NCBI GenBank assembly: GCA_028276365.1
Contig: JAPYWL010000010.1
Coordinates: forward strand, 1 to 32,602
Direction: 5' to 3'
From: Deltaproteobacteria bacterium
GTDB taxonomy: Bacteria; DRYD01
Length of the DNA: 32,602 bases
A program made the translations under genes and the position numbers. Under the pieces are notes generated by a model. It was not told where the DNA came from. It searched no databases and worked only from the letters and a program-made list of their open reading frames with translations. This document shows, piece after piece, positions 532 through 32,602 of the stretch (its first letter is position 1; the number at the start of each line of letters is the position of its first letter).

Positions 532-533
532 AA

Positions 534-577: not shown

Positions 578-824
578 AGTTATGCTATATATTCACTCCA
601 ATATAATAATTAGGTAAAAAAATAAAAAAATCCTTCATAATAAAAAAAACTGTTAATGTGAAATAGGGTAGTTTTTCTGGCTTTGTAATTACTAAAGAAA
701 AATTGATAGGTTTTCGGAATAGAATAATTTTATTGCTGTTTTAACAAATAATCTAAATAATCTAAAAAAACATTATACATGTAAACAATGATTTAAAAAT
801 TTTATAATGGGGGTTTAATTCAGT

Positions 825-4632: not shown

Positions 4633-5673
<1,041 letters not shown>

Positions 5674-5794
5674 CTATAGGTATGGATTAATAAGGGCTTA
5701 ATAGATATTTAAGTTTCGGAATAGGATAAGTGTATAAAATAAGTGTTATTGATATAAAAAATTAGGCAACAATAAATATTAAGTTTTTCTACTT

Positions 5795-16493: not shown

Positions 16494-17975
16494 CTATTTT
16501 TTGGGAAGTAAAGCGGGGAATAATATTACTTCCCTTATTGATATATTATTTGTTAAGATCATAACTAATCTATCTATACCAAAGCCTAAGCCACCTGTAG
16601 GTGGTAAGCCGTAAGATAACGCAGTTATATAATCGTGATCGTATTCATGAGCTTCTGCTTCTCCTTTTTCTTTTAATTTTTGTTGTTGTGTAAATCTTAG
16701 GGCTTGTTCATCAGGATCATTTAGCTCACTAAATGCATTAGCTACCTCAAAATTAGCTATAAATAATTCAAACCTTTCAGTATATAATGGATTATCACTT
16801 TTAGAAATAGCTAAAGGAGAGATTTCTACAGGATAATCAAGTACAAATGTAGGATCCCATAACTCTGGTTTTACTAATTCATCAAAAGCTTTATCTATAA
16901 CATGACTAATAACTCTGTTTTCTCTTGGGATTTTTAATTCATTAGCAATTTTTTCCAAGTATTCTTTATCATTTCTTAGTTTTTCTATATCTAATCCTTT
17001 TTTATATAGTTCATTTGGGAAGCTAATTTTTTTAAATGGTTTATTAAAATTCAATTTTTTCTCCTGATATTCTATTTCATGTGAATTATGTATGTAATAA
17101 ACTAGTGAAGAGATTATATCTTCTGTTAAGTTTATCATATCATTTAAATCTGCGAAAGCTTGATATAGTTCTAATATTGTAAATTCTGGATTATGTTTTG
17201 TTGAGATTCCTTCATTTCTAAAAACTTTACCTAATTCATAAACTTTATCAAAATTCCCTACTATTAGTCTTTTTAAATAGAGTTCTGGGGCTATTCTTAG
17301 ATACATATCAATTCCTAAGGTATTGTGATGAGTTTTAAAGGGTTTAGCTAAGGCACCTGTTGGAATTATGTTTAACATTGGGGTTTCCACTTCCATAAAT
17401 CCCTGATTTTCTAAATAGTTTCTTAAAAATTTAATTATTTTGCTTCTTATTATGAAATTTTTCTTAGCTTCGGGATTAATAAATAAATCTAAGTATCTTT
17501 GTCTATATCTGATTTCTGTGTCTTTGAGTCCATGCCATTTTTCAGGTAAAGGTAATATACATTTAGCTAAAAAGTGGTAATCTAATATGTGCAAAGTTAA
17601 TTCATTTGTTTTAGTTCTAAATAAATATCCTTTAACTAATATTAAGTCACCACTATCTATATAGTCCTTAAATATATCAAATTTTTCGTTAAGTTCATCT
17701 TTTTTTAAGTATATTTGTAATTTATGATTAACTCCTAAAAGATCGGAAAATATACTTTTTCCATGATGTCTTATATTTAGGAGCCTACCACCAACTATAT
17801 AAATTTCTTCTTTATTAAGATTTGTTTCATTTTCGAATTTAGTTTTTAATTCATCTACTGTTGAATTTGGTTTATAGGGTAAGGGGTATCCGTAAGGGTT
17901 TATTGATAATTCTTTTAGTTTTTTTCTATGAGTTAATCTTGAGTCTTTTTCATCGAGTTTTACTTCATTTATCAT
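16494..17975 (-). CDS. lysS: Class II lysyl-tRNA synthetase
   Basis: The 493-aa enzyme charges tRNA-Lys. It has an N-terminal OB-fold anticodon-binding domain (residues about 55-145) and a class II catalytic core: motif 1 around FLRNYLENQGFMEVETPML, motif 2 as KVFRNEGISTKHNPEFTILE, and motif 3 as GLGFGIDRLVMILTNN. RYRQRYLDLF, EVANAFSELNDPDEQALRF and the GLPPTGG stretch are characteristic of bacterial LysRS. An AGGAGG sits 6 nt before the ATG. It is the first gene of the lysS-mgtC-fpg-archease-manC operon. No T-box leader is visible upstream; instead there is a transposase remnant. Confidence 0.97.
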   Translation of the reverse strand: MINEVKLDEKDSRLTHRKKLKELSINPYGYPLPYKPNSTVDELKTKFENETNLNKEEIYIVGGRLLNIRHHGKSIFSDLLGVNHKLQIYLKKDELNEKFDIFKDYIDSGDLILVKGYLFRTKTNELTLHILDYHFLAKCILPLPEKWHGLKDTEIRYRQRYLDLFINPEAKKNFIIRSKIIKFLRNYLENQGFMEVETPMLNIIPTGALAKPFKTHHNTLGIDMYLRIAPELYLKRLIVGNFDKVYELGKVFRNEGISTKHNPEFTILELYQAFADLNDMINLTEDIISSLVYYIHNSHEIEYQEKKLNFNKPFKKISFPNELYKKGLDIEKLRNDKEYLEKIANELKIPRENRVISHVIDKAFDELVKPELWDPTFVLDYPVEISPLAISKSDNPLYTERFELFIANFEVANAFSELNDPDEQALRFTQQQKLKEKGEAEAHEYDHDYITALSYGLPPTGGLGFGIDRLVMILTNNISIREVILFPALLPKK

Positions 17976-18073
17976 AATTAACCTCCTTATTAATTAGTAG
18001 TTCTTATAAAGAATTCTTTATTTTTTTTTTATATTCCTTTTTATTACTTAGAGTATTTTTGAAAGGGTAATTC

Positions 18074-18215
18074 CTTAGTTATATCTAAATTCAAGCTCTT
18101 TTAAATAGTAGATAAAATTATCTTTACTTACACTATGAAATTTGAGCACTTTCTTTTTGCATAGCTCCAAAATCCTTTAATATTTGGGTGGAATATTTTA
18201 AACAATCACCTTGAA
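18074..18215 (-). pseudogene. IS1595-type (ISXO2-like) transposase C-terminal remnant
   Basis: Reading the minus strand, one frame gives FHPNIKGFWSYAKRK. After a one-base shift the next frame gives KFHSVSKDNFIYYLKELEFR followed by YN and a stop at 18075-18077. This matches the C-terminal end of IS1595-family transposases, whose consensus runs roughly H-x-N-x-I-E-G-F-W-S-x-A-K-R, then K-F-x-G-V-x-K, then YLKExEFRYN. Only about 45 codons survive, with a frameshift and no upstream domain, so it is a dead relic. It lies between lysS and trmD, where the rest of the insertion has been deleted. No terminal inverted repeats are recognisable. Confidence 0.65.
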
Positions 18216-18224
18216 AGTTATCTT

Positions 18225-19058
18225 TTAACTAGGAATTACATTATTTAAGATAGAATCATATAAAATTTCGTCTATTTCTTTATAATTTAGAAATTTAAGA
18301 AAAGGAAGGGGATAGTAAATCTTTTTTGATTTTTTTTTTATTTGAAAATATTTATAAAATTTTATATATAGTTCAGGTTTTTTATAGATTGTTTGGGTTA
18401 ATGAATTTTCTAAATTTTTTTTTATTATTTCTTTATGATTCCCTTTTACTAAGTATTCAGGGACTTCTAAATTGAAATTGTTATTTAATGGATTAATTAA
18501 TTTATTTGGCCTTGTATATTGAGGATTTTCTAATAAAAAAGGGATATTAAATAACGAAAAACTATCTTCTATATAACTGTTTTCATCTATTACTAATTTT
18601 CTTATTATAGATTCAATAATAACAAATACTGCTAATTCTCCGCTACTTATAACGTAATCACCTATTGATATCTCCTCATTTATGAATCTTATTATTCTCT
18701 CATCTATACCTTCATAATTTGGGGCTATAAATATGATTTCATTTAATTTAGATAAATCTTTTATTATATTACTATTTAGTATTTTACCTTTTGGAGAAGG
18801 TAAGATGATATAAGGTTTTTTACATTTTTTTTTAGAATATACTAATGCTTTATATAATGGTTCAAATTTAAATAGCATGCCTTTTTTTATACCATATATA
18901 TAATCATCTACTTTTTTATGTTTATCATCACTAAAATCTCTTATATTAATAATTTCAACTTCTAAAATCTTTTTATTAATTGCCCTTTTTAATATTGATA
19001 AATTTAATAAATCTTTAGTTAATTTTGGAAAAATAGTTAAAATAAAAGTTTTTAGCAT
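18225..19058 (-). CDS. trmD: tRNA (guanine-N1)-methyltransferase, divergent
   Basis: TrmD makes m1G37 in tRNAs and is usually essential. The 277-aa product shows the family plan: TIFPKLTKDLL start, INIRDFSDDKHKKVDD, the knot region APNYEGIDERIIRFINEEISIGDYVISSGELA, DSF, and LLENPQYTRP, then VPEYLVKGNHKEI. Several normally invariant positions have changed: the VDDxPYGGGxGM loop reads VDDYIYGIKKGM, CGRYEGIDER reads APNYEGIDER, and DYVLTGGEL reads DYVISSGEL. The glycine-rich SAM/knot loop is therefore eroded, although the frame is intact. There is no rimM, rplS or ffh beside it. It lies at the border of a region with many pseudogenes. It may be functional but fast-evolving, or newly inactivated. 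Confidence 0.85.
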   Translation of the reverse strand: MLKTFILTIFPKLTKDLLNLSILKRAINKKILEVEIINIRDFSDDKHKKVDDYIYGIKKGMLFKFEPLYKALVYSKKKCKKPYIILPSPKGKILNSNIIKDLSKLNEIIFIAPNYEGIDERIIRFINEEISIGDYVISSGELAVFVIIESIIRKLVIDENSYIEDSFSLFNIPFLLENPQYTRPNKLINPLNNNFNLEVPEYLVKGNHKEIIKKNLENSLTQTIYKKPELYIKFYKYFQIKKKSKKIYYPLPFLKFLNYKEIDEILYDSILNNVIPS

Positions 19059-19653
19059 TTTTTTGTTTTTAGCTCTTTATTTATCTATATTAGTTTTATT
19101 TTTTTTTTAACCTCTTATATTGACAACTATATTGAATGGATTTAATGAATTACATAAAGTTCTTTTAAGTGAGCTTTAAGAGAGATTGGGAGTCCCCGAG
19201 GGTTTTGCATACTACTAAATTATAAAAATCTTCTATATACTAAGGAAGCTTTTCTTTTTTATTTTTTATTATAAATATAATACAAATGAATAATTACAAG
19301 TAGTAATTAAAGAAAAAATTAATTTTGAAGGAAAACTTAGCTAAAAAACAAATCTGAGTAAAAAAGAAAAAAGTATTTATGTAAGGTTCTACTAAGAAAG
19401 AATATAAAAATTTTTTACAATGATTTTTTATAAAGTCCAAGCTTAGATTAGGTATATAAGGAAAAGATAAAAAAGATGTTATAGATAGTTTTACAAAGAC
19501 TTATCTAACAGCTGAGGATAATAGATGCTGTCTATCGATAAGGAAACTATATATGTCTTAAATTCTATTCTAATAAAAAGTCTATATTAATAAAGTTTTA
19601 TTCTAAGTAGCTATACTTTTAGAGTATTTAGCTATGTTTTACTATAAGCTATT
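19059..19653. other. 595-bp gap without a recognisable gene
   Basis: Both strands are full of stops. The longest readable plus-strand piece (about 19465-19560) encodes about 33 residues including DSFTKTYLTAED and LSIRKLYMS, and another plus-strand frame between 19321 and 19470 gives short pieces such as NLSKKEKSIYVRFY broken by stops. This looks like decayed coding DNA, perhaps mobile, but I cannot name a family. No tRNA or terminator was seen. Confidence 0.4.
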
Positions 19654-20448
19654 TTAAGGTAAAATTTTTTCTAAATTATAAATACTTTTTAGAGAGTATG
19701 ATTTAATAGTATATTGATAAGATTTAAAAAACGGATAATTGCTTTCAGCGGATAAATTAGTTTCAATCTTTATTGGCTTTGATTTTATCTTACCTGAATA
19801 GGGTATATAAGTTCTTTTATCATATGAAAAAGCATAAACAATAAATCCCAAACTAGATACTCCCCAGTCAGTAAAATAAAACCTACCTAAAATTTCATTA
19901 GGATTTAAGGTGATAATATAATTTTTTTTGGGATTTAAAGCTGGATCTAAAATAGTAATTCCTAATTTAGAGGCAGGAGAATTAATAACGTTACTTAAAG
20001 CATATACAAATATAAAATTAATTATTTAGAAAGGTTGCATTTAGGGGAGTATCGGTATAATCTGTAGAAATTACCATACTTCTCAAAACTTCACCTTCGT
20101 AATCTAAAATAACTAATAAATTATCCCAATTATTCACATTTTTAAACGCACATTCAACTAAGAAACACCTGTAAAGAGAATAAAGGTAGCTAAAAGAAGT
20201 ACGATTAATAACTTGTAAATTATTTCCTATACTCTTTAAACTTAATATGTTTTTATTTTTGTCATATTTAACAAATAATATGGAATCATTATATAGTTTG
20301 CAAATTTGTTTAGTAAACCATTTATCATAGAGCTATAAGTATATAGTATATCTGGATTAGATTTAGAGGCACTAAAACAGTATGTTTTATTAAACAAAAT
20401 AAAACTAATAAATATAATTATCAAATAAATTAGATTATTTTTTAGCAT
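19654..20448 (-). pseudogene. Frameshifted secreted-protein gene of unknown family
   Basis: Three consecutive minus-strand frames join into one coherent product of about 260 residues. Frame 1 (from ATG 20448) gives a signal peptide, NLIYLIIIFISFILFNKTYC, then FSASKSNPDILYTYSSMING. Near 20295 it shifts to a frame reading DSILFVKYDKNKNILSLKSI, continuing to VILDYEGEVLRSMVISTDYT. Near 20025 it shifts again to NFIFVYALSNVINSPASKLG, ending with GFIVYAFSYDKRTYIPYSGK and ...YNLEKILP before the stop at 19654. Alternating hydrophobic/polar strands suggest a beta-rich exported protein. No Shine-Dalgarno precedes the ATG. Two frameshifts in the same protein make a pseudogene the best reading; sequencing error in A/T runs is the alternative. 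Confidence 0.7.
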
Positions 20449-20498
20449 GTTTGTTTATTATAGGTATAAGTTAATTAGGTTAAATTTCAAATCCGCAT

Positions 20499-21272
20499 CT
20501 AGATTTCTAAATTTCTAGAATATTCTCCTTTAACGATTGGTACTTTTACTGAATTTCCCCATTCAGTCCAAGAACCGTCGTAATTTTTAACTTTAGGATA
20601 GTTTAGTAAATATTTTAAGACAAACCAAGTATGTGCTGATCTTTCTCCTATTTCATTAACAGCTGTAGCCCAGGGGATATTTATAGCAGTTGGTATATGA
20701 CCTCTTCTTAGTGTTCCTTCTTGGGGGTAATCTGGCATATGAATTAATTCACCTGTGTATTCTTTAGGACTTCTAACATCTATTAGGATTCCACCTTTCT
20801 TTATATGTTCTATTATTTCATCTTTGAATGCTCTTATTAGATTATCATTTCTTTTTTTAGCTTTGTAGTTAGTTTTGGGGAATTGAGGAACTTCTTTAGT
20901 TAGTGGTTTTCCTTCTTGTATCCATTTATTTCTGCCTCCATCCATTACTTTAACTAATTCATGACCAAATAAATTAAATACCCATAAAGCATAAGCAGCC
21001 CACCAATTGTTTTTATCTCCATAAAAAACTACTGTAGTATCATTTGATATTCCTTTTTCACTATATAATTTTTCAAATTGTTCTTCATTTATATAGTCTC
21101 TTTTAACGGGGTCATTTAGATCTGTATGCCAATCTATTTTAACGGCATTAGGTATATGTTCATATAGTAAAACATCTTCATCTACTTCTACTATTCTGAT
21201 TTTGGGGTTATTAATATTTTCTAATACCCAATCGGTACTTACTAATACAGGGTTTTCTAATTTTGTTGTCAT
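20499..21272 (-). CDS. Rhodanese/sulfurtransferase-family protein lacking the catalytic-cysteine segment
   Basis: This 257-aa tandem-rhodanese protein resembles the thiosulfate sulfurtransferase (CysA2/SseA) group. The N-terminal, normally non-catalytic domain is intact ([64 protein letters not shown]). In the C-terminal domain, [14 protein letters not shown] and [19 protein letters not shown] run directly into [16 protein letters not shown] and [17 protein letters not shown]. In relatives, roughly 25-35 residues ending in the active-site YCR precede IGERSSHTWFVL; here they are gone in frame. The whole protein contains no cysteine. A GAGGAAGG Shine-Dalgarno precedes the ATG and the frame is otherwise clean. 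It cannot do cysteine-based sulfur transfer, so it is either recently dead or a repurposed binding protein. Confidence 0.9.
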
Positions 21273-21416
21273 TCTATTTTTCCTTCCTCTTATTTTATAA
21301 GTCTTTATTTTAAAAGAATTTTATACCTTATTTTAAATGGAGTTGTTTTTTAGGGAGGTTTTTTTTTGTTTTTTTTGAATAACTAAAATATGAATATATT
21401 AGAGGGGCAAAATTTT

Positions 21417-21752
21417 TTGATAATATATACAGTTTTTATTAGTTTTTTAATGATTATAGCTGGATTGGTTGGTATAGTATATAGGAGAAATTTAGTAGCT
21501 ATTTTAATATCTATTGAGGTTATATTGAATGCAATAAATTTAGATTTTGTGTTATTTTCAAGATTGAAGGATAATATTAATTCTGTAATTGACGGCCAAG
21601 TATTTGCTTTATTTAACATATTAATAGCAGCAGTGGAAATAACAGTAGGTTTAGCTATAATCTTTGCTATAAGAAATCAGTTACAAACTTCAGATATGGA
21701 TAAACTTAATAAAATAAGTTCTTTAAACAATAATAATTTAGATAATGATTAA
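21417..21752 (+). CDS. nuoK: NADH-quinone oxidoreductase subunit K, solitary
   Basis: NuoK is a three-helix membrane subunit of the proton-pumping arm of complex I (also MrpC-like). The protein has the family pattern RRNLVAILISIEVILNAINL, with the conserved Glu of helix 2, and DGQVFALFNILIAAVEITVG, with the second conserved Glu. The frame extends to ATG 21390 but has no Shine-Dalgarno there; TTG 21417 lies about 10 nt after AGAGGGG (21401-21407) and gives an N-terminus of usual length before RRN, so I favour it (ATG 21390 would give 120 aa). A polar Asn/Asp-rich tail follows the third helix. No other nuo or mrp gene is adjacent, which is unusual for this subunit. Confidence 0.88.
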   Translation: MIIYTVFISFLMIIAGLVGIVYRRNLVAILISIEVILNAINLDFVLFSRLKDNINSVIDGQVFALFNILIAAVEITVGLAIIFAIRNQLQTSDMDKLNKISSLNNNNLDND

Positions 21753-21867
21753 TAGAGTATAGTTATTTTTATATTTTTTTTGGAGGGGATAGGAAAGAAT
21801 TGAAGAAAAACAAAAATATTAAGTTTTTATTTGTTTAAAGTTTTTTAAATTAATAGAGGGGGTAGTT

Positions 21868-22152
21868 ATGGCTTATAGACCATGTAAATTTAGGCATTCT
21901 CAGTTAGGGATATTTCAATGTGAAAGACATATGTATCAGCATAGTGATCAGGATCAGTATGAGGAGTTATATCAATTTTGTTTACAGAATGTTCCAGATA
22001 AATTTTGTCCTTATATAGATTTTGGGTTTGATATGTCTCAGGATCCACCAAGAATTTTTATTAATTGTACTCATCCATATTTTGGGGGACCGTTGAAAGC
22101 CATTGGGGATTGTCCTAATTGTCCATTCCCTGAAGGTGATTCCTTGGCTTAG
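21868..22152 (+). CDS. Cysteine-rich small protein of unknown family
   Basis: I do not recognise this 94-aa protein. It has seven cysteines at residues 6, 18, 38, 47, 67, 82 and 85, plus histidines at 10, 21, 25 and 69, and a closing CPNCPFPEGD. The pattern suits a zinc or Fe-S site rather than disulfides, since no signal peptide or membrane helix is present. The middle (DKFCPYIDFGFDMSQDPPRI) is acidic/aromatic. GAGGGGG lies about 6 nt before the ATG, so translation is probably good. It sits between nuoK and the DUF167 gene on the same strand, which may indicate shared transcription. A redox or metal role is inference only. Confidence 0.8.
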   Translation: MAYRPCKFRHSQLGIFQCERHMYQHSDQDQYEELYQFCLQNVPDKFCPYIDFGFDMSQDPPRIFINCTHPYFGGPLKAIGDCPNCPFPEGDSLA

Positions 22153-22185
22153 TTATTTTTTATTCTTTTAATTTTAGAAGTTTTT

Positions 22186-22404
22186 ATGTTAATAAAGGTA
22201 AAAGTATTCCCTAATTCTAAGGTAGAAGAAATAATAAAGAAATCAGATGATGAATATATAGTTAAGGTAAAAGATAAAGCAGAACAAGGAAAAGCTAATA
22301 AAAGAGTTAAGGAACTTTTAGCTAATTTTTTCTCTAAAAATGAAGACAAAATTATATTAATTAAAGGATCAAATCAACAAAATAAAATTTTTAAAATTTA
22401 TTAA
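22186..22404 (+). CDS. DUF167 (YggU) family protein
   Basis: The 72-aa product matches DUF167 (PF02594): VKVFPNSKVEEI at the start corresponds to the family's V-x-P-x-(A/S)-x-K-x-x-I motif, and the middle VKVKDKAEQGKANKRVKELLA matches the V-x-A-P-P-x-x-G-x-A-N-x-x-L signature, with KDKAEQGKAN replacing APPVDGKAN. IILIKGSNQQNKIFKI corresponds to the family's closing SR-x-K-x-x-x-I strand. Function is unknown across bacteria. It follows the cysteine-rich gene by 33 bp on the same strand. Its Shine-Dalgarno is weak. Confidence 0.88.
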   Translation: MLIKVKVFPNSKVEEIIKKSDDEYIVKVKDKAEQGKANKRVKELLANFFSKNEDKIILIKGSNQQNKIFKIY

Positions 22405-22820: not shown

Positions 22821-23005
22821 AATTATCTTTGATTTTAATTCTGTTTTAATGCCTTTTTAATATTTTTTTTATATATTTTTTACTTTTTTGTATTAAGAAT
22901 TTATAAAGAAAATAGAAGTTTTTAGGTTTTATTTAGGATAGTAAAAATATGGGGATATTAAATTACCAGAGATTAGATTAATAATAAGCAGGAGCTTTTT
23001 ATCAT

Positions 23006-23317
23006 ATGAAAAAATCTAAAACTTTATCTAAGGAAATTAATAATAATGATGATTTGCTAATTAAAGAACAAGCCAAAAAAAAAATAAAAATACAGGTAAT
23101 AGGAACTTAACAATTGATAAATTAGATAAAGAATTAATTGAATAATTATATATATGGAGAAGAATTAATAGAATATGATTTTGTGGGAAATATTATTCCT
23201 AATGAAAAATATACAGGTGAAGTTTTAGTAAAAGAAGAAATAATACCTTCTGAAAAATATAAAGCAGAAATATTTATAAAAAAAAATATAATATTTAATT
23301 TTTTTGTTGATGATTAA
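23006..23317 (+). pseudogene. Broken reading frame of unknown family
   Basis: ATG 23006 follows AGGAG (22991-22995) and opens a lysine-rich 34-aa frame, MKKSKTLSKEINNNDD onward, that ends at TAA 23108-23110 just after a run of nine A at 23077. In another frame the text continues as NLTIDKLDKELIE and then stops. A third frame gives GEELIEYDFVGNIIPNEKYT and VKEEIIPSEKYKAEIFIKKN, ending at a TAA near 23317. The three parts have one composition and probably come from a single small gene broken by slippage in A-runs. A shared YTGEVLVKEEIIPSEKYKAE motif hints at an internal repeat (IIPxEKY occurs twice). I see no family. Confidence 0.4.
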
Positions 23318-23533
23318 TTAAAAAAATAGCAAGCAATTATTTAAGTTTTTTACTAAGTATTTATAAGGAAATAAAGCAATTAAGCTAGTTGTAAATAGTT
23401 GTAAATAATTTTAAATAATTCTAAATAATTGTAAATAATAAAGAAAATGAAAAAAGTAAAACAGGATTGGGGGAATTGAAAGTGAATGAGCAAAAAGAAA
23501 TAAAGAGAAAAGGGAGAAAAAAGGGGGTAAAAA

Positions 23534-23797
23534 ATGGAAAGGGGGATAAAGAGATGGAAGAGAGCGGGGATAATGATAATTTTAGCGTTATTTTTGTTAG
23601 TATTTTTTAGGTAAATAATATTATTGATTATAATATGTGGTATAAGACGCAGGGGATAAAGATGCTAAGGACAAAGTATATAACGCTTGTATTTAGGAAT
23701 ATGAAAATATGATGTGAGGATGATAAACGAAGTGATAAAGAGTAAAGCAGAGCTGATATGGGGAAGTAAAAAAATTCAGCCCATTCTTCCCTATTGA
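23534..23797 (+). pseudogene. Small membrane/secreted-protein gene, frameshifted
   Basis: ATG 23534 lies 6 nt after GGGGG and encodes a 26-residue peptide with a basic start and a hydrophobic stretch (RAGIMIILALFLLVFFR) before TAA 23612-23614. A +1 shift continues as VNNIIDYNMWYKTQGIKMLR and TKYITLVFRNMKI. A further shift back to the first frame gives DVRMINEVIKSKAELIW, ending at TGA 23795-23797. Together they look like an approximately 85-aa exported or membrane-anchored protein with two frameshifts. The alternative is that the 26-aa peptide is itself a small membrane peptide. Codon choice (ATA, AGG, GGG) resembles the downstream ATPase gene. Confidence 0.4.
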
Positions 23798-23910
23798 TTC
23801 CTATTGATTTAGGAATATTCCCATATACTTCTAATATCTCTATTGGTTTTGGTGATCAACAGAAATCGGATTTTTTAAAATAGTGTCTAATGTTAGAAAA
23901 AGTATATTGA

Positions 23911-24270
23911 AGGTAAGCAAGTGGAAGTAAAGGCAAGCAAAGGGAAGCAAAGGGAAATAAATGAAGCCAAAAGGAACCAAAAGGAAACAAAAGAAACCAA
24001 AGGAAACTAATTGAAATAAATTTAAATCAAAAGAAATCAAAGGAAACCAAAAGAAACCAATTGAAACCAATTGAAGCCAATTGAAAGCAATTGAAACCAA
24101 GGGAAGCCAATTGAAGCTAATTGAAGCTAATTGAAACTAATTGAAACTAATTGAAAGCAATTGCAAGCAAAAGAAACTAAAAGAAACTAAATGAAACTAA
24201 ATGAAACCAAGGGGAACCAAAAGGAACCAAAGGAAACCAAAAGAAAGCAAAAGAGAGCAAAGGGAACAAA
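23911..24270 (+). repeat. Decanucleotide tandem array, 36 units
   Basis: From 23911 to 24270 the sequence is an unbroken run of 10-bp units ending in AA, with consensus about (T/A)(T/A)GAAACCAA. Examples are TTGAAACCAA, TTGAAGCCAA, AAGAAACTAA and ATGAAACTAA. Units vary by substitution, but none of the 36 changes length. Homogeneous blocks occur (four TTGAAR units at 24061-24100; runs of identical neighbours at 24111-24150), as expected from local duplication. The purine-rich strand is the plus strand. Flanking DNA fades into purine-rich sequence on the right. The unit length is close to one helical turn, so its A-runs are in phase and bending is predicted. It ends 158 bp before the AAA-ATPase start codon. 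Confidence 0.95.
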
Positions 24271-24428
24271 AGGTATTAAAAGAAAGAAAAAGATAAAAAA
24301 GAAAAACAATTAGAAAAAAGAAAAAGAGCTAAAAAAAAAGAGAAAAAGAGAGGGAAAAATTGACAGATAAAGGAATAAAAAAAGGGAAAAATAGAAAGGG
24401 AGGAGTAAAGAAGAGGAGGAAAAGGAAG

Positions 24429-25955
24429 ATGAAGAGGTTAGGAATAGGGATAAGTGATTTTAAGGAATTAATAAAAGGAAATTATATATACGTAGATAAA
24501 ACGGAGTATATATATAAGTTAATAGATAGTGGGAAATATTATTTTTTAAGTAGGCCAAGACGTTTTGGAAAATCATTATTACTATCTACACTTGAGTATT
24601 TATTTAAAGGAGAAAAGGAGTTATATAAAGGATTGTATATAGAGGATAAGTGGAGATGGGAGGAGACTTATCCAGTGGTAAGAATAGACTTTGCCAAAGA
24701 TATAAAAAATAAGGAAGATTTAAGGGAGAAGATGTATCAGGAATTAAGGAAAAATTATATGTGGAATAAATTGGAGATGTCAAAGGAAGTAAGAGATGAG
24801 AGTATATTATTAGAGGAGCTAATAATGAGGATAAGTGAGAAGGAGAGGAAGCAAGTGGTAGTATTAGTAGATGAATATGATAAGCCGATATTGGATGTAA
24901 TAGAGGATAAAAAGGAAGCAGAAGAAGTAAGAAAAGAACTAAAGGGATTTTATTCAACATTAAAAGGATTAGATAGGTATATAAGGTTTGTATTAATAAC
25001 AGGAGTAAGCAAATTTTCAAAGGTATCATTATTTAGTGGATTAAATCAATTGAAGGATATCTCATTAGATGTAAGATATGGGAATATATGTGGATATACT
25101 CAAGAAGAGTTAGAGTTTTATTTTAAGGAGTATTTAGAAGGAGTAAATTTAGAAGAGGTAAGGGAATGGTATAATGGATATAGCTTTTTAGGAGATAGGT
25201 TATATAATCCGTTTGATATATTGTTGTATTTGGATAGTAAGAAGTATAAGAATTATTGGTATAAAACGGGAACGCCAAGTTTTTTAATAAAACTAATAAA
25301 GAGTAGGAGATATGATATAACAAAATTAGAGAATATGGTAGTAAAAGAGGATATATTGGAAAAATTTGATATAGAGGAGATAAGAATAGAAGCATTGATG
25401 TATCAAACGGGATATTTGACAATAAAAGAGGTGTATGAAAGAGAATATGGAGAAGAATATAGATTAGGGTTTCCGAATAAGGAGGTAAGAATATCGTTTA
25501 ATGAGGATGTATTACCGTTGGTATTAAAAGATAATATAAGGGAAAATATAGCAGATAAGATAATAGAGATATTAAAGGGAGAGAAATTAGAGGAGCTAAA
25601 AAAGCAGCTAGAAGTGTTAATAAGCAATATAAGTTATGTACATTATAAAGGGGAATCAAGTTATGTAATAGCGATATTTAGTTTATTATATTCTACAGGA
25701 TTAAATGTGATAACAGAAGATAATACTCATAAAGGTAGAATAGATTTAGCTATAGTAGTAAATAAAGAGATAGTATATATAATAGAGGTAAAGGTAATAG
25801 AAAGAGAAGACGAGAGGGGGAAAGCGATAAAACAAATAGAAGAAAAGGAGTATTACAAGAAGTATATGAATTATGAAAGGGTATATATAGTGGGAATAGA
25901 GATAGATAAGTTTAAAAAGCAGATAATAAATTATGAATATAAGAGGGTAAAATAG
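24429..25955 (+). CDS. AAA-ATPase-like / PD-(D/E)XK nuclease family protein
   Basis: This 508-aa protein belongs to the widespread PF09820 (AAA-ATPase_like) plus PF08011 (PDDEXK_9) group, often present in many copies per genome and possibly mobile. The start KRLGIGISDFKELIKGNYIY is followed by VDKTEYI. FLSRPRRFGKSLLLSTLEYLF is the family's Walker A region, VVVLVDEYDKPIL is Walker B, and GVSKFSKVSLFSGLNQLKDI a conserved sensor area. Near the C-terminus GRIDLAIVVNKEIVYIIEVKV supplies the D...ExK nuclease motif. ATG 24429 follows AGGAGG; the frame is open back to TTG 24360 but that part is basic low-complexity. Codons are strongly ATA/AGG/TTA/GAG-biased and the coding strand is purine-loaded, unlike its neighbours, which suggests transfer. 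Function is unproven. Confidence 0.9.
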   Translation: MKRLGIGISDFKELIKGNYIYVDKTEYIYKLIDSGKYYFLSRPRRFGKSLLLSTLEYLFKGEKELYKGLYIEDKWRWEETYPVVRIDFAKDIKNKEDLREKMYQELRKNYMWNKLEMSKEVRDESILLEELIMRISEKERKQVVVLVDEYDKPILDVIEDKKEAEEVRKELKGFYSTLKGLDRYIRFVLITGVSKFSKVSLFSGLNQLKDISLDVRYGNICGYTQEELEFYFKEYLEGVNLEEVREWYNGYSFLGDRLYNPFDILLYLDSKKYKNYWYKTGTPSFLIKLIKSRRYDITKLENMVVKEDILEKFDIEEIRIEALMYQTGYLTIKEVYEREYGEEYRLGFPNKEVRISFNEDVLPLVLKDNIRENIADKIIEILKGEKLEELKKQLEVLISNISYVHYKGESSYVIAIFSLLYSTGLNVITEDNTHKGRIDLAIVVNKEIVYIIEVKVIEREDERGKAIKQIEEKEYYKKYMNYERVYIVGIEIDKFKKQIINYEYKRVK

Positions 25956-25981
25956 GTTTAATTATTTTGAAAAGGTTTTAG

Positions 25982-26164
25982 TTTTTTGAAATTGAAAAAT
26001 TACTTAAAATAGTGGATAATATTCAAAAAGAGACTGATAGTATATCTAAAGCTATTAACTCTATTCAAAAATCTAATGAGAGTATTCGTAAGGAGATCCT
26101 TAAATCTAAAAACCTACAAAATTTTGATAATAATTCAAGTAATAATTTTAATGATAATCCGTAA
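25982..26164 (+). pseudogene. Coiled-coil protein fragment
   Basis: A 60-codon open frame follows a TAG at 25979-25981 and reads EKLLKIVDNIQKETDSISKA, then INSIQKSNESIRKEILKSKN, then an Asn-rich tail. The heptad pattern suggests a coiled coil. There is no ATG; GTG 26012 is possible but has no Shine-Dalgarno. It is probably the 3' remnant of a longer gene, or a very short gene upstream of the methylase. Confidence 0.4.
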
Positions 26165-26230
26165 AAAAGAAATTTCTTTTTTATTTTAGGATATTCTATT
26201 AAATAATGTAAATAGTTTTTGGAGGGGGGT

Positions 26231-29200
26231 ATGAGTTTAATTTCTCAAAATCAGGAAATAAAAATTCTTACTGATTTACTTAATCATGTTAAATCCCAAA
26301 ATATAACAGAAGAAGAATTTTTAGATTACTTTATCTCATTCTTTAAAAGAAAAAATAATAACTTTATAGAGCTAATAGAAGCTGAAAATTTAGCTGATTT
26401 TTTAGATAATAAAGATAAAGCTAAGTTCTTGAGGCTAATAAGATTGGGAGAAATTCAATTTGATTATGAAAAATTAGTATTTTATGCTTGTAAAATAAAG
26501 GATCAGCTTAATTATAGAACTTCTAAGAAGATACAATATCAATTAGCTAAAAAATTACTTAAGACTTATAACGATGATGCAGGTATTTTTATATTTTATG
26601 ATGATAACTTTAATTTTAGGTTTTCTTTAGTTTATGCCATATACAAAGGAATAAAACGGGAATTCAGTTACTATAAAAGATTTACTTATTATGTTAATCC
26701 AAATTTACCATATAAGACATTTATAAAACAAGTAGGAGAGTGTGGATTTAGTAGTATAGAAGAAATCCAAAAAGCATTTAGTATAGAACCAGTTACTAAA
26801 GAATTTTATAAAGAAATTCAGAATTGGTATTTTTGGGCGTTTAGTGAATGGGAAAAAGGAAATCTTAAATTCCCACTTGATAATCAAGAGAAATCCAATT
26901 ATGAGGAGCATATTAAAATCAATCTGATTAGATTAATCACAAGGATAATATTTATATGGTTTATAAAAGAAAAAGATTTAATCCCCAATAAGTTATTTGA
27001 TAAGAAAGAGTTAAAGAATATAGTAAAGGATTTTAATACTAAGAGTAATTATTATAATGCGATTTTACAGAACTTATTTTTTGCTACTTTGAATACTCCA
27101 TTAGAAAACAGGGGCTGGGCTTTAGATAAAGGATACGTTATAAATAGATCCAATTATGGTGTTAAAAATCTATATAGATATGAGGATATGTTTTTAATAG
27201 AGAAGGAAGAAGTTCTTAAATTATTTAAAGAGATTCCGTTTTTAAATGGTGGATTATTTGATTGCTTGGATAAAGAGGATCCAAATGGTAAAGTGATCTA
27301 TGTAGATGGGTTTTCAAGAAGAGAAGATAAAAGAGCTATTATTCCTGATTACCTGTTTTTTAAGGAAAAGATAGAAAGAATAGACTTATCTAAGTATGGA
27401 TTAGGTAAAAACGAAGAGGTAAGGGGATTAATTGAGATTTTAAATAATTATAACTTTACAACAGATGAAGCAACTGAAATAGATCAAGAAGTAGCATTAG
27501 ACCCTGAATTATTAGGTAAGATATTTGAGAATTTATTAGCAAGCTATAATGAAGAAACAGCTACTACAGCAAGAAAAGCCACAGGTAGTTTTTATACCCC
27601 AAGGGAAATAGTAGATTATATGGTTAAAGAATCTCTAAGAGAATATTTTAAAGAAAAATTACCATTAGTAACTCAAGAAGAACTAAATAATTTATTATCT
27701 CCAAGTGATGAGGAATTAGAACTTGAAGAGAATAAAAAGAGAGAAATAATAAAAGCGATATATGAGTTAAAAATAATAGATCCAGCATGCGGTAGTGGTG
27801 CTTTTCCTATGGGGATACTACATAAATTAGTACATATACTCCAGAAAATAGATCCTCATAATAAATTATGGCCAGAATTTGTATTAGATGAATCACTAAA
27901 AGAATTAGAAAGATTAGGCCAAAGTGAAGATAAAGATAAAATAGTAAAAGAAATAGAGGAGGTATTTAATGAGAATTTAAATTATCCAGATTATGGTAGG
28001 AAGTTATATTTAATAGAAAATTGTATTTATGGGGTGGATAAGCAACCTATAGCAACTCAAATAAGTAGGTTAAGGTTTTTTATATCCTTGGTAATAGATC
28101 AAAAAGTAGATAAGAATAATCCTAATAATTATGGGATATTACCACTACCTAATTTAGAAACTAATTTTATTAGTGCTGATACTTTACTAAATTTAGAGAA
28201 ACCTTTACAAGGTAATTTTTTTGAAAGTGAGGAATTAAAAAAATTAAAGAAAAAACTAATTGAACTAAGACATAGATATTTTAGGATAAAAGATAGAAGT
28301 AGTAAGTTAGGATTACAAAAAAAGGATAAAGAAATAAGAGAAAAAATAAAGGAGTTATTGGTAAAAAATAGTTGGCAGGAAGTGGAAGCAAAGAAAGTAG
28401 CGGATTTTGATATATTTGATCAAAATTCCTGGGCTGATTGGTTTGATAGTAAGTACATGTTTGGAGTTAATGAAGGATTTGATATTGTTATAGGTAATCC
28501 TCCATATGTAAGACAAGAAAAAATAAGAAATATGAAAACTAAATTAACAAAATACGAAGTTTATACTTCTACAGCAGATTTATATGTGTATTTTTATGAA
28601 AAGGGTATAAAGTTGTTAAAAGAAAGGGGAATATTGAGTTATATAACGAGTAATAAATGGTTAAGGGCTAAATATGGTGAAAAATTAAGGGATTATTTGA
28701 AAAATTATAAGGTTTTAAAGATAATAGATTTTGGGGGCTATAGAGTATTTGAGCAAACTGTTGATACTAATATAATAATCATAAAGAAGGAAAAGAGTAA
28801 TGATAATATAGTTAAATTTTTAGAGGTTTCAAAAGATGTAAAGAAAGAGGATTTAATAAGTTATATAAATGATATCAAGAATTGGAATGAACTAAAACAA
28901 AGTAAGCTAAATAAAACTGGATGGATATTAACTAAGGATGAGGTATTAAAGCTAAAAGAAAAAATAGAAAGGATTGGAAAACCACTTAAAGATTGGGACG
29001 TTAAAATTTACAGAGGTATTTTAACTGGATATAATGAAGCATTTATTATTGATAATGAAACAAGGAATAGAATATTAAGTAATTGTAAAGATGAGGAAGA
29101 AAGAAAGAGAACTCAAGAATTAATTAAACCTATCTTAAGAGGAAGAGATATAGGTAAGTATTATTATAAATGGGCTGGGCAATGGGTTATAGTTATACCT

Positions 29201-29815
29201 GCGGGATGGACCAATAAGAATAGAGGAAAAGAAAATCCAGAAAAATTTTTTAAGGAAAAATTTCAATCGTTATATAATTATTTTATGAGTTTTTCTAATG
29301 TTAAAACGAAAGGTAGGGGACTATTTGATAGAGATGATCAGGGGGATTATTGGTGGGAGTTAAGGCATTGTAATTATTATTTTGAATTTGAAAAAGAAAA
29401 AATAATTTACCAAGAGATAGTTATGGAGCCGTCCTTTGCTTATGATAATAATAATTTTTATATTGAAGCAACTGGGTTTATAATGGTAGGAAAAGATTTA
29501 AAGTATATATTAGGTCTTTTAAATTCTAAACCTGTATCTTTTTTCTTTAGAAATTACTATGCTGGTGGTGGATTAGGAGAAAAAGGATATAGATATAAAA
29601 AAGCATTTTTAGAAAATCTTCCGGTACCTGCTATAACTTCTGCTAACAAAGGAATAGTAGATAAAATAGTAGATTTAGTGGATAGGATAATACTATTAAA
29701 GAATCAGGATATAAATAATGATATTTCTAATTTAGAAAGGGAGATAAATGAATTAGTATATAAGCTTTATGATTTAACCCAAGATGAAATAAAGATACTA
29801 AAAGAAAGTAAGTAA
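26231..29815 (+). CDS. Eco57I-type DNA methyltransferase, large (type IIG-like)
   Basis: This 1194-aa protein modifies DNA adenine. ATG 26231 follows GGAGGGGGG; the frame is open to TTG 26219 but that would precede the Shine-Dalgarno. The N-terminal third (residues 1 to about 430) has helical segments and FIFYDDNFNFRFSLVYAIYK; AFSIEPVTKEFYKEIQNWYF is typical of this methylase group. Motif I is IIDPACGSGAFPMGIL (about residue 515) and motif IV is DIVIGNPPYVRQEK (about residue 755). The C-terminal 300 residues carry a TaqI-like specificity region ending in LNSKPVSFFFRNYYAGGGLG and ENLPVPA. I see no clear PD-(D/E)XK site, so cleavage may need a partner. It lies in a defence cluster with ImmA/IrrE, PIN-like and PLD-helicase-like genes. 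Confidence 0.9.
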   Translation: MSLISQNQEIKILTDLLNHVKSQNITEEEFLDYFISFFKRKNNNFIELIEAENLADFLDNKDKAKFLRLIRLGEIQFDYEKLVFYACKIKDQLNYRTSKKIQYQLAKKLLKTYNDDAGIFIFYDDNFNFRFSLVYAIYKGIKREFSYYKRFTYYVNPNLPYKTFIKQVGECGFSSIEEIQKAFSIEPVTKEFYKEIQNWYFWAFSEWEKGNLKFPLDNQEKSNYEEHIKINLIRLITRIIFIWFIKEKDLIPNKLFDKKELKNIVKDFNTKSNYYNAILQNLFFATLNTPLENRGWALDKGYVINRSNYGVKNLYRYEDMFLIEKEEVLKLFKEIPFLNGGLFDCLDKEDPNGKVIYVDGFSRREDKRAIIPDYLFFKEKIERIDLSKYGLGKNEEVRGLIEILNNYNFTTDEATEIDQEVALDPELLGKIFENLLASYNEETATTARKATGSFYTPREIVDYMVKESLREYFKEKLPLVTQEELNNLLSPSDEELELEENKKREIIKAIYELKIIDPACGSGAFPMGILHKLVHILQKIDPHNKLWPEFVLDESLKELERLGQSEDKDKIVKEIEEVFNENLNYPDYGRKLYLIENCIYGVDKQPIATQISRLRFFISLVIDQKVDKNNPNNYGILPLPNLETNFISADTLLNLEKPLQGNFFESEELKKLKKKLIELRHRYFRIKDRSSKLGLQKKDKEIREKIKELLVKNSWQEVEAKKVADFDIFDQNSWADWFDSKYMFGVNEGFDIVIGNPPYVRQEKIRNMKTKLTKYEVYTSTADLYVYFYEKGIKLLKERGILSYITSNKWLRAKYGEKLRDYLKNYKVLKIIDFGGYRVFEQTVDTNIIIIKKEKSNDNIVKFLEVSKDVKKEDLISYINDIKNWNELKQSKLNKTGWILTKDEVLKLKEKIERIGKPLKDWDVKIYRGILTGYNEAFIIDNETRNRILSNCKDEEERKRTQELIKPILRGRDIGKYYYKWAGQWVIVIPAGWTNKNRGKENPEKFFKEKFQSLYNYFMSFSNVKTKGRGLFDRDDQGDYWWELRHCNYYFEFEKEKIIYQEIVMEPSFAYDNNNFYIEATGFIMVGKDLKYILGLLNSKPVSFFFRNYYAGGGLGEKGYRYKKAFLENLPVPAITSANKGIVDKIVDLVDRIILLKNQDINNDISNLEREINELVYKLYDLTQDEIKILKESK

Positions 29816-29850
29816 AAAATTAATTTTAAAAAAAGGGGATAAATAATTTT

Positions 29851-30054
29851 GAGTCTATAGATAATAAGCATGTTGATATTACATTTGCTACAAAAACTCC
29901 AGTAATTAAGATTTAAGAGGAGAAACTATAGAAAGCACCCAAAGATTTCTTAGAGAATGAAGGGACTCTTAAAGAAGGAATGTTCTTTTCCCTTAAGGAA
30001 ATTTATAGATAAAATGAAAAAGAAATCCAAAAAATAATAATCTCTTTATTTTAA
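29851..30054 (+). pseudogene. Decayed reading frame between the methylase and the XRE/ImmA gene
   Basis: A single plus-strand frame reads ESIDNKHVDITFATKTPVIK, a stop, EEKL, a stop, then KAPKDFLENEGTLKEGMFFS and LKEIYR, a stop, then NEKEIQKI before TAA 30052-30054. Three nonsense codons in a frame with protein-like composition suggest a decayed gene fragment. No family is recognised. The rest of the 367-bp gap (30055-30182) is AT-rich with nothing visible. Confidence 0.35.
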
Positions 30055-30182
30055 TAAAAAATATCATAAACAAAACATTTAGTAAAATTAGTAAATTAGA
30101 AAAAGGGTAAAGAGATAAAAAAATACAATAGAATAATAGAGCTAAGCTATAAGGATAAATAAAGATAAACGTTTTTAAAAGT

Positions 30183-31355
30183 ATGAAGGATTTTAAAGTT
30201 GATGTTAATCCTGAGGTTATAAAATGGGCACGGGAATCCAGTGGATATACCTTAGAATATATATCTAAAAAACTTAATCTACCTACTCAAGAATACAAGA
30301 AAATAGAAACTGGAGAAGAAAAAATCTCTTTTAAAAAACTTCAAAAATTAGCAAATATTATAAAAAGACCTATCTCCGTATTTTTACTACCAGAAATCCC
30401 TAATGAACCTTCAACTAAATTATCTTTTAGAATTATTCCCAATACTTTAAAAGATACACAAAATAACATTGACCCTGAATTAATACTTACTATTAGAAAA
30501 GCAAAATATTATCAATCTATTGCTAATGAATTAATAAAAGAATTGAATTTGGAAAATAAAATATCAATCCCTAATTTTAGTCTAAAAGATGATCCTGCTG
30601 AAGTTGCTAATCAAGAAAGAGAAAGGATCGGAATTCCTATAACTGAACAAGAAAAATTTAAAGATGAATATCAAGCTTTTAATAAATGGAGAGAAATTAT
30701 AGAAAACCAAAATATTTTAGTTTTTCAATTTAGCTTTCCTATTGAACAAAGTAGAGGATTTGTAATAGTAGAAAAAAATCCCCCTGTTATTGTTATTAAT
30801 ACAAAAGATTATATTCTTGCTAAAATTTTTACCCTTTTTCATGAATACGCCCATATTTTATTAAGAATATCTGAAATCTATTCAGAAGAAGATTTAAATA
30901 CTCAAAATCAGGAGAATAAAGAAATTGAAACTTGGTGTAATAAATTTGCTAGCGAATTCTTACTCCCTAAATCCCATTTCATAAATGAATACAATTTTTT
31001 AGTAAATAAAAAGTTATCTTTGGAAGATTTAATAAGTAAATTATCAACTACATTTAAAGTAAGTAAGCAAGTGGTGTTAATAAAATTAAAAGAAATAGAA
31101 TTAATAAATGATGATGAATATAGAGAGCAGATAAATAAACTTCCAAAGATGTATAAGGAACTTGGAAAGTACCGTTTTACTAAATCCAAGAAAGATGTTA
31201 ACTTCAGGAAATGTATTCAAGAAAGAGGTAAAAAATTTATTTCTTTAATATTTTCAGCAAAAGAAAAAGGGTTAATAACTACTGCTGATGCTATAGAATA
31301 TCTTTCTTTAAAGCTTAATGATCTTAATAAATTAGAATCTTCACTTGAAGCTTAA
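30183..31355 (+). CDS. XRE helix-turn-helix plus ImmA/IrrE metallopeptidase protein
   Basis: This 390-aa protein combines an N-terminal XRE-type DNA-binding domain (residues about 8-65; WARESSGYTLEYISKKLNL, then YKKIETGEEKISFKKLQKLA) with an ImmA/IrrE zinc-peptidase domain. The active site is FTLFHEYAHILL (HExxH at about residues 219-223), followed downstream by EIETWCNKFASEFLLP, whose Glu and ASEFLLP are typical. Such proteins cleave repressors or serve as antitoxin/regulators of adjacent toxins. It has no visible Shine-Dalgarno before ATG. The DUF4411 PIN-like gene follows, a pairing commonly seen in genomes, but here the two are separated by about 300 bp holding a HEARO-like element. The C-terminal about 90 residues are unassigned. 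Confidence 0.92.
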   Translation: MKDFKVDVNPEVIKWARESSGYTLEYISKKLNLPTQEYKKIETGEEKISFKKLQKLANIIKRPISVFLLPEIPNEPSTKLSFRIIPNTLKDTQNNIDPELILTIRKAKYYQSIANELIKELNLENKISIPNFSLKDDPAEVANQERERIGIPITEQEKFKDEYQAFNKWREIIENQNILVFQFSFPIEQSRGFVIVEKNPPVIVINTKDYILAKIFTLFHEYAHILLRISEIYSEEDLNTQNQENKEIETWCNKFASEFLLPKSHFINEYNFLVNKKLSLEDLISKLSTTFKVSKQVVLIKLKEIELINDDEYREQINKLPKMYKELGKYRFTKSKKDVNFRKCIQERGKKFISLIFSAKEKGLITTADAIEYLSLKLNDLNKLESSLEA

Positions 31356-31418
31356 ATAAAATAAAATATTAAAAGTTCATTTTGTTTTTATCTTTTTAAC
31401 CCAAAACTGTAAGAAGTC

Positions 31419-31440
31419 TCCACCTTCTATAAGGTTGAGA
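31419..31440 (+). repeat. Left-end hairpin of element B
   Basis: CTCCACCTT, loop CTAT, AAGGTTGAG: a 9-bp imperfect stem with one mismatch. It repeats the right-end hairpin at 31619-31640 with one substitution. Paired subterminal palindromes are the recognition structures of IS200/IS605 TnpA-type transposition. Confidence 0.75.
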
Positions 31441-31618
31441 TGAATTGCGAAAGACGTGACAAGGTTCTTATTTGGGACTATATTGGACTATAATAGTAGA
31501 TGTCCCGATAATCAAGGGACCTAGGGTTGGAACGACCCGAAGTTAAGCCTTTAAAGCATGCTCTGGTGGATGACAGTATCGGGATACCTAAAAAGCTATC
31601 ATGCTTTCAAGCAGGAAG

Positions 31619-31640
31619 CTCCACCTTCTATAAGGTGGAG
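31619..31640 (+). repeat. Right-end hairpin of element B, also covering the toxin Shine-Dalgarno
   Basis: CTCCACCTT, loop CTAT, AAGGTGGAG: a perfect 9-bp stem, followed by TAGTTCAC. Its right arm GGTGGAG is the only Shine-Dalgarno-like sequence before ATG 31652 (11 nt away), so folding would hide it. Confidence 0.8.
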
Positions 31641-31651
31641 TAGTTCACTTT

Positions 31652-32173
31652 ATGAATATTTATATTATTGATACATCTAGTTTAATTGAAATGAAAAATA
31701 GATATCCTAAAGAGAATTTTCCCAGTCTTTGGGAAAAAGTAGAAGAATTAATATCAAAAAATAGATTAATTTCTCCATTAGAAGTAAGAAAGGAAATAGA
31801 AAGAGGGGATGATGAATTATCAAAATGGGTTAAAAATAAAAAAATAAACAGGATGTTTATAAAACTTGATAGCTTACAAATAGAAAAAGCTAAGGAAATA
31901 CTAAAGAAGTATCCTTTTTTAGCAGAAGTAGAGAAACCTGATAACTTAAATGCTGATCCATATTTAATAGCTTTGGCTCTCGTTAAAAAAGAACTTAGCA
32001 AAAAAGAATTATTAGCAATGAAACTATTTGATAAAAATAGTGTAGCTATAGATTATATAATCATAACCGAAGAATCTCTAAAGCCTAATAAAATACCTTA
32101 TATATGTAAGGATTTAAAAATAAATTGTATAAAATTATTAAAAATGATTGATTTAGAAGGTTGGTCTTTTTAG
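31652..32173 (+). CDS. DUF4411 PIN-like toxin
   Basis: This 173-aa protein has the PIN-like start YIIDTSSLIEMKNRYPKENF, whose first Asp is the metal ligand. SPLEVRKEIERGDDELSKWV supplies the central acidic residues, and NADPYLIALALV supplies the third conserved Asp region (PF14367, DUF4411). DUF4411 genes often sit beside XRE/ImmA-IrrE genes and are regarded as RNase toxins of toxin-antitoxin pairs. The start codon is part of the ATGA at the edge of the HEARO-like element, and the Shine-Dalgarno comes from that element's hairpin. The ORF is full length with no frameshift. Toxicity and RNase activity are inferred from the family. Confidence 0.85.
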   Translation: MNIYIIDTSSLIEMKNRYPKENFPSLWEKVEELISKNRLISPLEVRKEIERGDDELSKWVKNKKINRMFIKLDSLQIEKAKEILKKYPFLAEVEKPDNLNADPYLIALALVKKELSKKELLAMKLFDKNSVAIDYIIITEESLKPNKIPYICKDLKINCIKLLKMIDLEGWSF

Positions 32174-32244
32174 TTAAATAATAAAACAAAAATAAAGATA
32201 AGGTAAAATTAAAAATAAAAAACTAAAAGTAGGGGTAAAGATAA

Positions 32245-32602
32245 ATGTTATTAAATAGGATGAATAATTTTATAACTAATAATTTAGAAAAGAACTTAAA
32301 AAGGAGAATAAATAGGCTTATACTTGATAGCAAAGAACTTAAATTCCTTGTAGGATTCTTCTATTTCTCTGGACTTAAAGAACTATACGAAGGAATAAAA
32401 CAAAACTCCAATTTGTTAATAAAAATCTTAGTAGGACTATATGTAGATAAAACTAACTACGGGATTATAGAATACGCTGAAAAATCTAATATTAGTTTTG
32501 AAGAAAAAATAAACCTACTCATTAACTCAATAAAAAAATCTATTAACACGGAACTATTTGATAATAAAGATTTCTATGAACAAGCTAACTTCTTTATTAA
32601 AC
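32245..32602 (+). CDS. PLD-like N-terminus of a probable defence helicase, cut by the window end
   Basis: ATG 32245 follows AGGGG by 9 nt and the frame runs off the window after 119 codons. The visible text NNFITNNLEKNLKRRINRLI, then KELKFLVGFFYFSGLKELYE and LLIKILVGLYVDK, resembles the phospholipase-D-like N-terminal domain found before SNF2/DEAD helicase domains in restriction-type loci. The HxK nuclease motif and helicase motifs would lie further on or outside the window, so the helicase part is inference from the neighbourhood and family. It follows the PIN-like gene by 71 bp on the same strand, near the Eco57I-type methylase. Confidence 0.65.
   Translation, partial: MLLNRMNNFITNNLEKNLKRRINRLILDSKELKFLVGFFYFSGLKELYEGIKQNSNLLIKILVGLYVDKTNYGIIEYAEKSNISFEEKINLLINSIKKSINTELFDNKDFYEQANFFIK

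What the first reader, a model, noticed from the sequence alone, without database searches (positions are those of the whole stretch)
23911..24270. 360-bp array of 36 ten-base units with no length variation
Every unit is exactly 10 bp although units differ by substitutions, so selection or the copying mechanism preserves spacing. A-runs recur once per helical turn, predicting curved DNA. The array ends 158 bp before an AAA-ATPase/PD-(D/E)XK gene. It is not CRISPR (no spacers) and not coding in plus frames. It may be a binding platform, a recombination or replication site, or the recognition locus of the adjacent protein.
Basis: seen in the sequence. Interest (0 to 1): 0.75.

Follow-up and report, generated by a model that had tools for sequence, protein, structure and literature searches.

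The report
Ten-base satellite before recombining ATPase-nuclease genes
The 360-base array is a real bacterial "satellite" of ten-base units that recurs in front of about a quarter of a 28-copy family of ATPase-nuclease genes in this one genome, in a block of shuffled genes that also holds truncated pilus-gene copies; it looks more like a by-product and helper of gene shuffling than a protein-binding site.

Summary
In detail: 35-36 units of 10 bp in unbroken register at 23911-24270, far beyond chance (lag-10 identity 0.79 against 0.37±0.02 in shuffles). The unit, AAnnGAAnYY, forms about a dozen arrays in this 1.59-Mb genome. With one exception, every array whose downstream DNA is assembled stands just before an AAA-ATPase_like/PDDEXK_9 (DUF1703) gene, in the same orientation. 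Only 8 of 28 intact paralogs carry one (7 clear, 1 short), and the six other genomes of the phylum carry none, so it is not a general recognition site of this protein. Curvature of the window array is no greater than in shuffles. Adjacent units are more alike than shuffled units, array edges decay, and copy number changes mostly in steps of ten: a minisatellite growing by local duplication. Array genes lack the -10-like hexamers that all 20 other paralogs have within 200 bp, and the paralogs are mosaics of one another. The block also holds type IV pilin-like genes: one full "pilX" and three 5'-truncated copies, each directly after such an ATPase gene, with a mosaic variable centre, as in silent cassettes. 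Best reading: an array grown in the promoter-poor purine-rich leader of recombining cassettes. Function is inferred, not shown.

The parts
23513..23866 (+). remnant (pseudogene) of a type IV pilin-like gene, 'pilX'
   Evidence: tblastn match to the full-length pilX ORF of contig C52 with several stops; 83% DNA identity to the pilX copy of C62
23389..23439 (+). small separate 10-bp repeat (TTGTAAATAA x5), probably degenerate and unrelated
   Evidence: TRF
23911..24270 (+). 10-bp tandem array, consensus AAnnGAAnYY, 35-36 units in one register
24277..24428 (+). purine-rich leader (100 A, 38 G, 11 T, 3 C) without -10-like hexamers; array units fade into it; recurs before the other array genes
24429..25955 (+). 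AAA-ATPase_like (PF09820) + PDDEXK_9 (PF08011) gene, 'DUF1703' family, 508 aa
   Evidence: Pfam; conserved start and invariant motifs in 17 paralogs; AlphaFold pLDDT 90
25991..26159 (+). end of an RmuC-like gene, mostly lost here, larger in contig C1
   Evidence: 99.4% identity to C1:10926-11094, which lies in a PF02646 RmuC ORF

Best explanation
The array is a bacterial minisatellite. Shown: it lies in the promoter-poor, purine-rich leader of a subset of a 28-copy ATPase-nuclease family; adjacent units are nearest relatives, edges are degenerate and copy number differs mostly by whole units, as expected if it grows and shrinks by local duplication; related arrays sit with related cassettes; paralogs and neighbouring pilin copies are mosaics; several rearrangement junctions fall inside arrays. 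Inferred: the array is copied along with the cassette by duplication and recombination, supplies repeated homology that helps cassettes realign, misalign and exchange segments, and, by displacing the usual promoter, leaves those gene copies weakly transcribed, dependent on read-through, or silent. The exact 10-bp step is then a result of unit copying more than of helical phasing or a bound protein.
For: About 12 arrays in the genome; those with assembled downstream DNA stand before a DUF1703 gene in the same orientation, except orphan C1b. Adjacent-unit Hamming distance below shuffled in 11 of 11 arrays tested (window 2.49 against 3.58±0.17) and edge scores low. Length differences between related arrays mostly multiples of 10. 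-10-like hexamers absent within 200 bp of 7 of 8 array genes, present for 20 of 20 others. Gene mosaicism: C24's best partner changes from C2 to C93 to C16 to C73 along the gene, at 0.94-1.00 in most windows. Junctions in arrays: gene 3' end fused to array in C2; 63-bp pilV fragment inside C52, C62 and C93 arrays. No arrays in six other genomes of the phylum.
Against: Unit positions differ strongly in conservation (A1, A6, A7 at 0.91-0.98 against about 0.5 at positions 3, 4 and 8), and between related arrays substitutions are about 12 times rarer at 1, 6, 7 than at 3, 4, 8, 9; that could be selection on a motif, though exchange between units would also give it. Orientation is constant in all 8 cases. 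Array genes keep intact reading frames, catalytic motifs and ribosome-binding-like sites, so they are probably expressed at some time. No recombination or expression was measured.
Confidence: 0.47

Rival explanations
1. Inert hitchhiker: a neutral satellite that arose once by slippage in purine-rich DNA and was copied passively with the cassettes; no role in recombination or expression.
For: Same growth signatures as the best explanation; rare unit changes hit conserved positions as often as expected (30 of 51 against 33 expected, p 0.38); absent from close relatives.
Against: Nearly exclusive association with one gene family at one position and orientation; arrays of up to about 80 units kept in a 1.6-Mb genome; pyrimidines at positions 9-10 retained inside a strongly purine-skewed block.
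Confidence: 0.23
2. Binding platform: each AAnnGAA unit binds one protomer of a DNA-binding protein (a nucleoid protein, a regulator or the ATPase itself), giving a filament or operator that controls the gene.
For: Fixed 10-bp step and orientation; positional conservation. The ATPase model matches Orc1/Cdc6 weakly (E 2.7e-4, TM 0.31), so DNA binding is plausible.
Against: Most paralogs and relatives have no array; curvature not above shuffles for the window; unit number varies from about 10 to about 80; no depletion of rare changes at conserved positions.
Confidence: 0.19
3. Leader-RNA element: the array is transcribed from a far-upstream promoter as a long unstructured 5' leader with regularly spaced CC/UC dinucleotides that controls Rho termination, stability or translation.
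For: No promoter-like hexamers between array and gene, so any transcript would start in or above the array. Most units carry CC, UC or CCC.
Against: In C24, C52 and C62 a terminator-like hairpin, judged by eye, stands just before the array; no Rfam match; many units lack YC.
Confidence: 0.08

Closest known systems
DUF1703 family (AAA-ATPase_like PF09820 + PDDEXK_9 PF08011), expanded in Cardinium cCpun (PMC6387759)
   Same: Same two-domain genes; a similar burst of 25 divergent paralogs with intragenic recombination
   Different: The passages of that paper read here mention no tandem arrays (no occurrence of 'tandem', 'intergenic' or 'upstream'); here 28 intact copies, some with arrays and pilin cassettes, in another lineage
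Neisseria pilE/pilS silent pilin cassettes (PMC3899283, PMC3547852)
   Same: One full-length pilin-like gene, several 5'-truncated copies with a mosaic variable centre between conserved blocks
   Different: No exchange shown; each truncated copy follows a DUF1703 gene; no pilE-type G4 shown upstream of the full copy (loose G3N7 runs occur mainly in arrays with CCC units, not in the window)
Minisatellites (satellite DNA and VNTR loci) evolving by unequal crossing-over and slippage
   Same: Local unit similarity, decayed edges, whole-unit length change
   Different: In a bacterium, in fixed orientation before one recombining gene family
ParMRC-type centromeres with tandem 10-12-bp repeats (resemblance from memory)
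   Same: Short direct repeats next to an ATPase gene
   Different: No ParM or ParR partner; Orc1/Cdc6-like ATPase with nuclease; many chromosomal copies of different length
44-bp tandem arrays before DUF1703 genes in Desulfobotulus alkaliphilus (found here, L118/G040)
   Same: Tandem repeats 13-160 bp upstream of several DUF1703 genes of one genome
   Different: Unrelated GC-rich palindromic unit; across 71 loci from many taxa upstream tandem repeats are not enriched (7/71 against 5/72 downstream)

Membership tests
DUF1703 (PF09820 + PF08011) protein family | both Pfam domains above cut-off | tested here: met
   218 and 45.8 bits against 26.1 and 25.5
DUF1703 (PF09820 + PF08011) protein family | P-loop GKS, DEYDK, and D...ExK nuclease residues | tested here: met
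   invariant in 17 paralogs; core residues invariant in 43 homologs
Minisatellite evolving by local duplication | adjacent units more alike than distant ones | tested here: met
   11 of 11 arrays
Minisatellite evolving by local duplication | length change by whole units | tested here: met
   differences of 10, 20, 30, 50, 70 between related arrays, few exceptions
Minisatellite evolving by local duplication | length polymorphism between cells | not testable with these tools
   no reads; arrays break the assembly at C52, C58 and C93 ends
Neisseria-type silent pilin cassettes | full copy plus 5'-truncated copies | tested here: met
   C52 full; C24 x2 and C62 truncated
Neisseria-type silent pilin cassettes | type IV pilin N-terminal motif in the expressed protein | tested here: inconclusive
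   N_methyl over cut-off in pilV only; pilW below cut-off; pilX no Pfam match
Neisseria-type silent pilin cassettes | gene conversion into the expressed copy | tested here: inconclusive
   mosaic pattern only
CRISPR | repeats separated by unique spacers | tested here: not met
   units abut
ParMRC centromere | adjacent ParM/ParR genes | tested here: not met
   neighbours are DUF1703, pilin-like, RmuC-like and defence-type genes
Intrinsically curved DNA | curvature above composition-matched shuffles | tested here: not met
   window array z -0.2; other arrays -0.7 to 2.7; wedge values from memory

The most novel reading that the evidence does not exclude
The block is a dedicated diversity-generating system: the array marks each silent cassette and the DUF1703 ATPase-nuclease acts at or near it to start conversion of the pilin-like gene, the neighbouring lipoprotein-like gene and its own paralogs.
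Probability: 0.08. Interest if true: 0.88.

Novelty: new variant of a known kind. Interest (0 to 1): 0.52.

Why it matters
DUF1703 genes are widespread and sometimes massively expanded, and the role of the expanded Cardinium set is undetermined (PMC6387759). Here the expansion is tied to a patterned minisatellite, loss of nearby promoter hexamers, heavy mosaicism and truncated pilin copies. That gives a testable link between this nuclease family and programmed or accidental gene shuffling.

Tried and rejected
CRISPR (no spacers). Coding array (stops in plus frames; minus-strand ORF is period-driven). Phage or plasmid origin (no match in phages or plasmids; the single IMG/VR hit L078 is a 20-base chance match). 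Curved DNA. General rule for DUF1703 genes in other taxa (no enrichment). Arrays of C83 (coding 42-bp repeat) and of C124 and C68 (A-rich chance matches) set aside. Purifying selection on the unit: positional pattern suggestive, but the rare-variant test shows no depletion. Solved homologs: none by sequence; fold search weak.

Full report
What is there. The window holds 35-36 ten-base units in one unbroken register (23919-24268 in my tiling). Lag-10 identity is 0.79 against 0.37±0.02 in shuffles. The array ends 158 bp before the conserved ATG at 24429 of a 508-aa gene with AAA-ATPase_like and PDDEXK_9 domains.

Other copies in the genome. A DNA search finds about a dozen array segments on contigs C1 (two), C2 (two), C16, C24, C52, C58, C62, C73 (short), C74 and C93. 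The C83 match is a coding 42-bp repeat and is set aside. The same genome holds 32 PF09820 matches, of which 28 are intact genes that I used. Eight of these carry an array, always upstream and in the same orientation (C73 only a short one). C52, C58 and the left end of C93 run into contig ends; C1b is an orphan array with no gene after it. Labels on the gene tree need 5 changes against 7.2 in shuffles, so arrays are scattered over the tree. Among seven genomes of the phylum a three-unit pattern occurs only in this one (100 forward and 24 reverse places, control 0), although four of the six relatives carry 5-19 PF09820 matches each. Upstream regions examined in the same-genus relative have no 10-bp arrays.

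Anatomy of the unit. Over 581 tiled units the consensus is A.97 A.94 A/T, T/A/G, G.91 A.91 A.98, A/G/C, C/T, C/T. Related arrays (C2 with C24; C62, C52 and C93) differ mostly at positions 3, 4, 8 and 9 and rarely at 1, 6 and 7 (97 of 754 against 6 of 568, p about 3e-18). This could be selection, but exchange among units would also hide changes at positions where all units agree. Rare unit types show changes at conserved positions about as often as letter slots predict (30 of 51 against 33; p 0.38). I therefore do not claim selection on the motif. Off-register steps are 10 of 472 core junctions.

How it grows. In 11 of 11 arrays adjacent units are more alike than shuffled ones (window 2.49 against 3.58±0.17), and units at the edges score low. 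In the window the array fades into the purine-rich leader. Length differences between related arrays are mostly whole units. This is the signature of local duplication and explains the exact step without a bound protein. Curvature of the window array equals that of shuffles (parameters from memory, used only for comparison).

The leader. Array genes have a leader made almost only of A and G. Within 200 bp of the start 7 of 8 array genes have no -10-like hexamer, while 20 of 20 others have at least one (Fisher p 7e-6); the exception is a TAAAAT 28 bp before the start in C24. Full promoter-like pairs within 300 bp are absent from all 8 array genes, but also from several others. Promoter scans are consensus matches only.

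The cassette. Genes are mosaics of each other. Downstream of the DUF1703 stop in C24 and C62 comes a pilin-like gene cut at its 5' end; C24 shows DUF1703 end, pilX, reverse lipoprotein-like gene, array, DUF1703, pilX, reverse lipoprotein-like gene in tandem. C52 holds a pilV-pilW-pilX set with the only full pilX, then the reverse gene, then an array. The four pilX copies are 0.90-1.00 identical at most flanking windows and 0.41-0.75 in parts of the centre, with partner switches. A 63-bp piece of pilV sits inside the arrays of C52, C62 and C93, and in C2 a DUF1703 3' end runs directly into an array. In the window a pilX remnant lies just before the array. The pilin reading rests on an N_methyl match in pilV, a weaker one in pilW, and gene order; pilX has no Pfam match, and 'lipoprotein-like' for the reverse gene is a reading of its N-terminus by eye, also without a Pfam match. 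The names pilV, pilW and pilX are labels for this report, not tested orthology.

A purine-skewed block. Across pilVWX, the reverse gene, arrays and DUF1703 one strand has about 0.60-0.78 purines and mostly positive GC skew, including the gene read from the other strand, whose sense strand has only 0.37-0.38 purines. DUF1703 genes of the same-genus relative also have raised third-position G, so part of this belongs to the family. Its cause is unexplained.

A parallel elsewhere. Desulfobotulus alkaliphilus has 44-bp (and related 21- and 23-bp) tandem repeats upstream of several of its own DUF1703 genes, at distances of about 13 to 450 bp. Across 71 loci from many taxa such repeats are not enriched upstream (7/71; 5/72 downstream; 7/57 and 3/61 far away), so this is a second case and not a rule.

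The protein. AlphaFold gives a confident model (pLDDT 90). The nearest solved fold is archaeal Orc1/Cdc6 (E 2.7e-4, TM 0.31), a weak match that fits a DNA-binding ATPase joined to a nuclease. No solved homolog is found by sequence.

Caveats. The genome is a metagenome-type bin that appears to mix at least two strains: C1 and the window share the same locus at about 91% identity, so some copies may be alleles, not paralogs. C24 alone shows two cassettes on one molecule. No expression or recombination data exist here. Organism names are not given for this genome.

Noticed in passing
window about 530-600 (- strand) and 7756 (+); L018:5811-6165; L020, L031, L034, L039: A CRISPR-type repeat (GTTTAGCTTACCCATAGGGGAATTGAAAG) forms a short array on C66 and also occurs as solitary copies, several with a shared flank, dispersed in the genome.
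   Followed up: partly
L036:5502-6434; L033:263-1117 and 5188-6015; L032:2619-3473: Candidate silent-cassette family: one full and three 5'-truncated pilin-like genes with a mosaic hypervariable centre, found in no other genome of the phylum.
   Followed up: partly
L036:4000-8690, L033, L032, window 23001-26000, L017:7500-16000: Block of several kb with extreme purine and GC skew on one strand regardless of gene direction; cause unknown.
   Followed up: partly
L118 / L173-L177 (Desulfobotulus alkaliphilus): 44-bp, 23-bp and 21-bp tandem palindromic repeats upstream of several DUF1703 genes.
   Followed up: partly
window 26219-32602: Defence-type neighbourhood: type IIG restriction-methylase, HTH + ImmA/IrrE gene (RmrA-like), DUF4411 gene.
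   Followed up: no
L031:1-3468 against window 17864-22403: The same trmD-rhodanese-nuoK locus (gene names by eye) is present twice at about 91% identity, so the bin probably mixes strains; the right flanks are 99.4% identical over 169 bp.
   Followed up: partly
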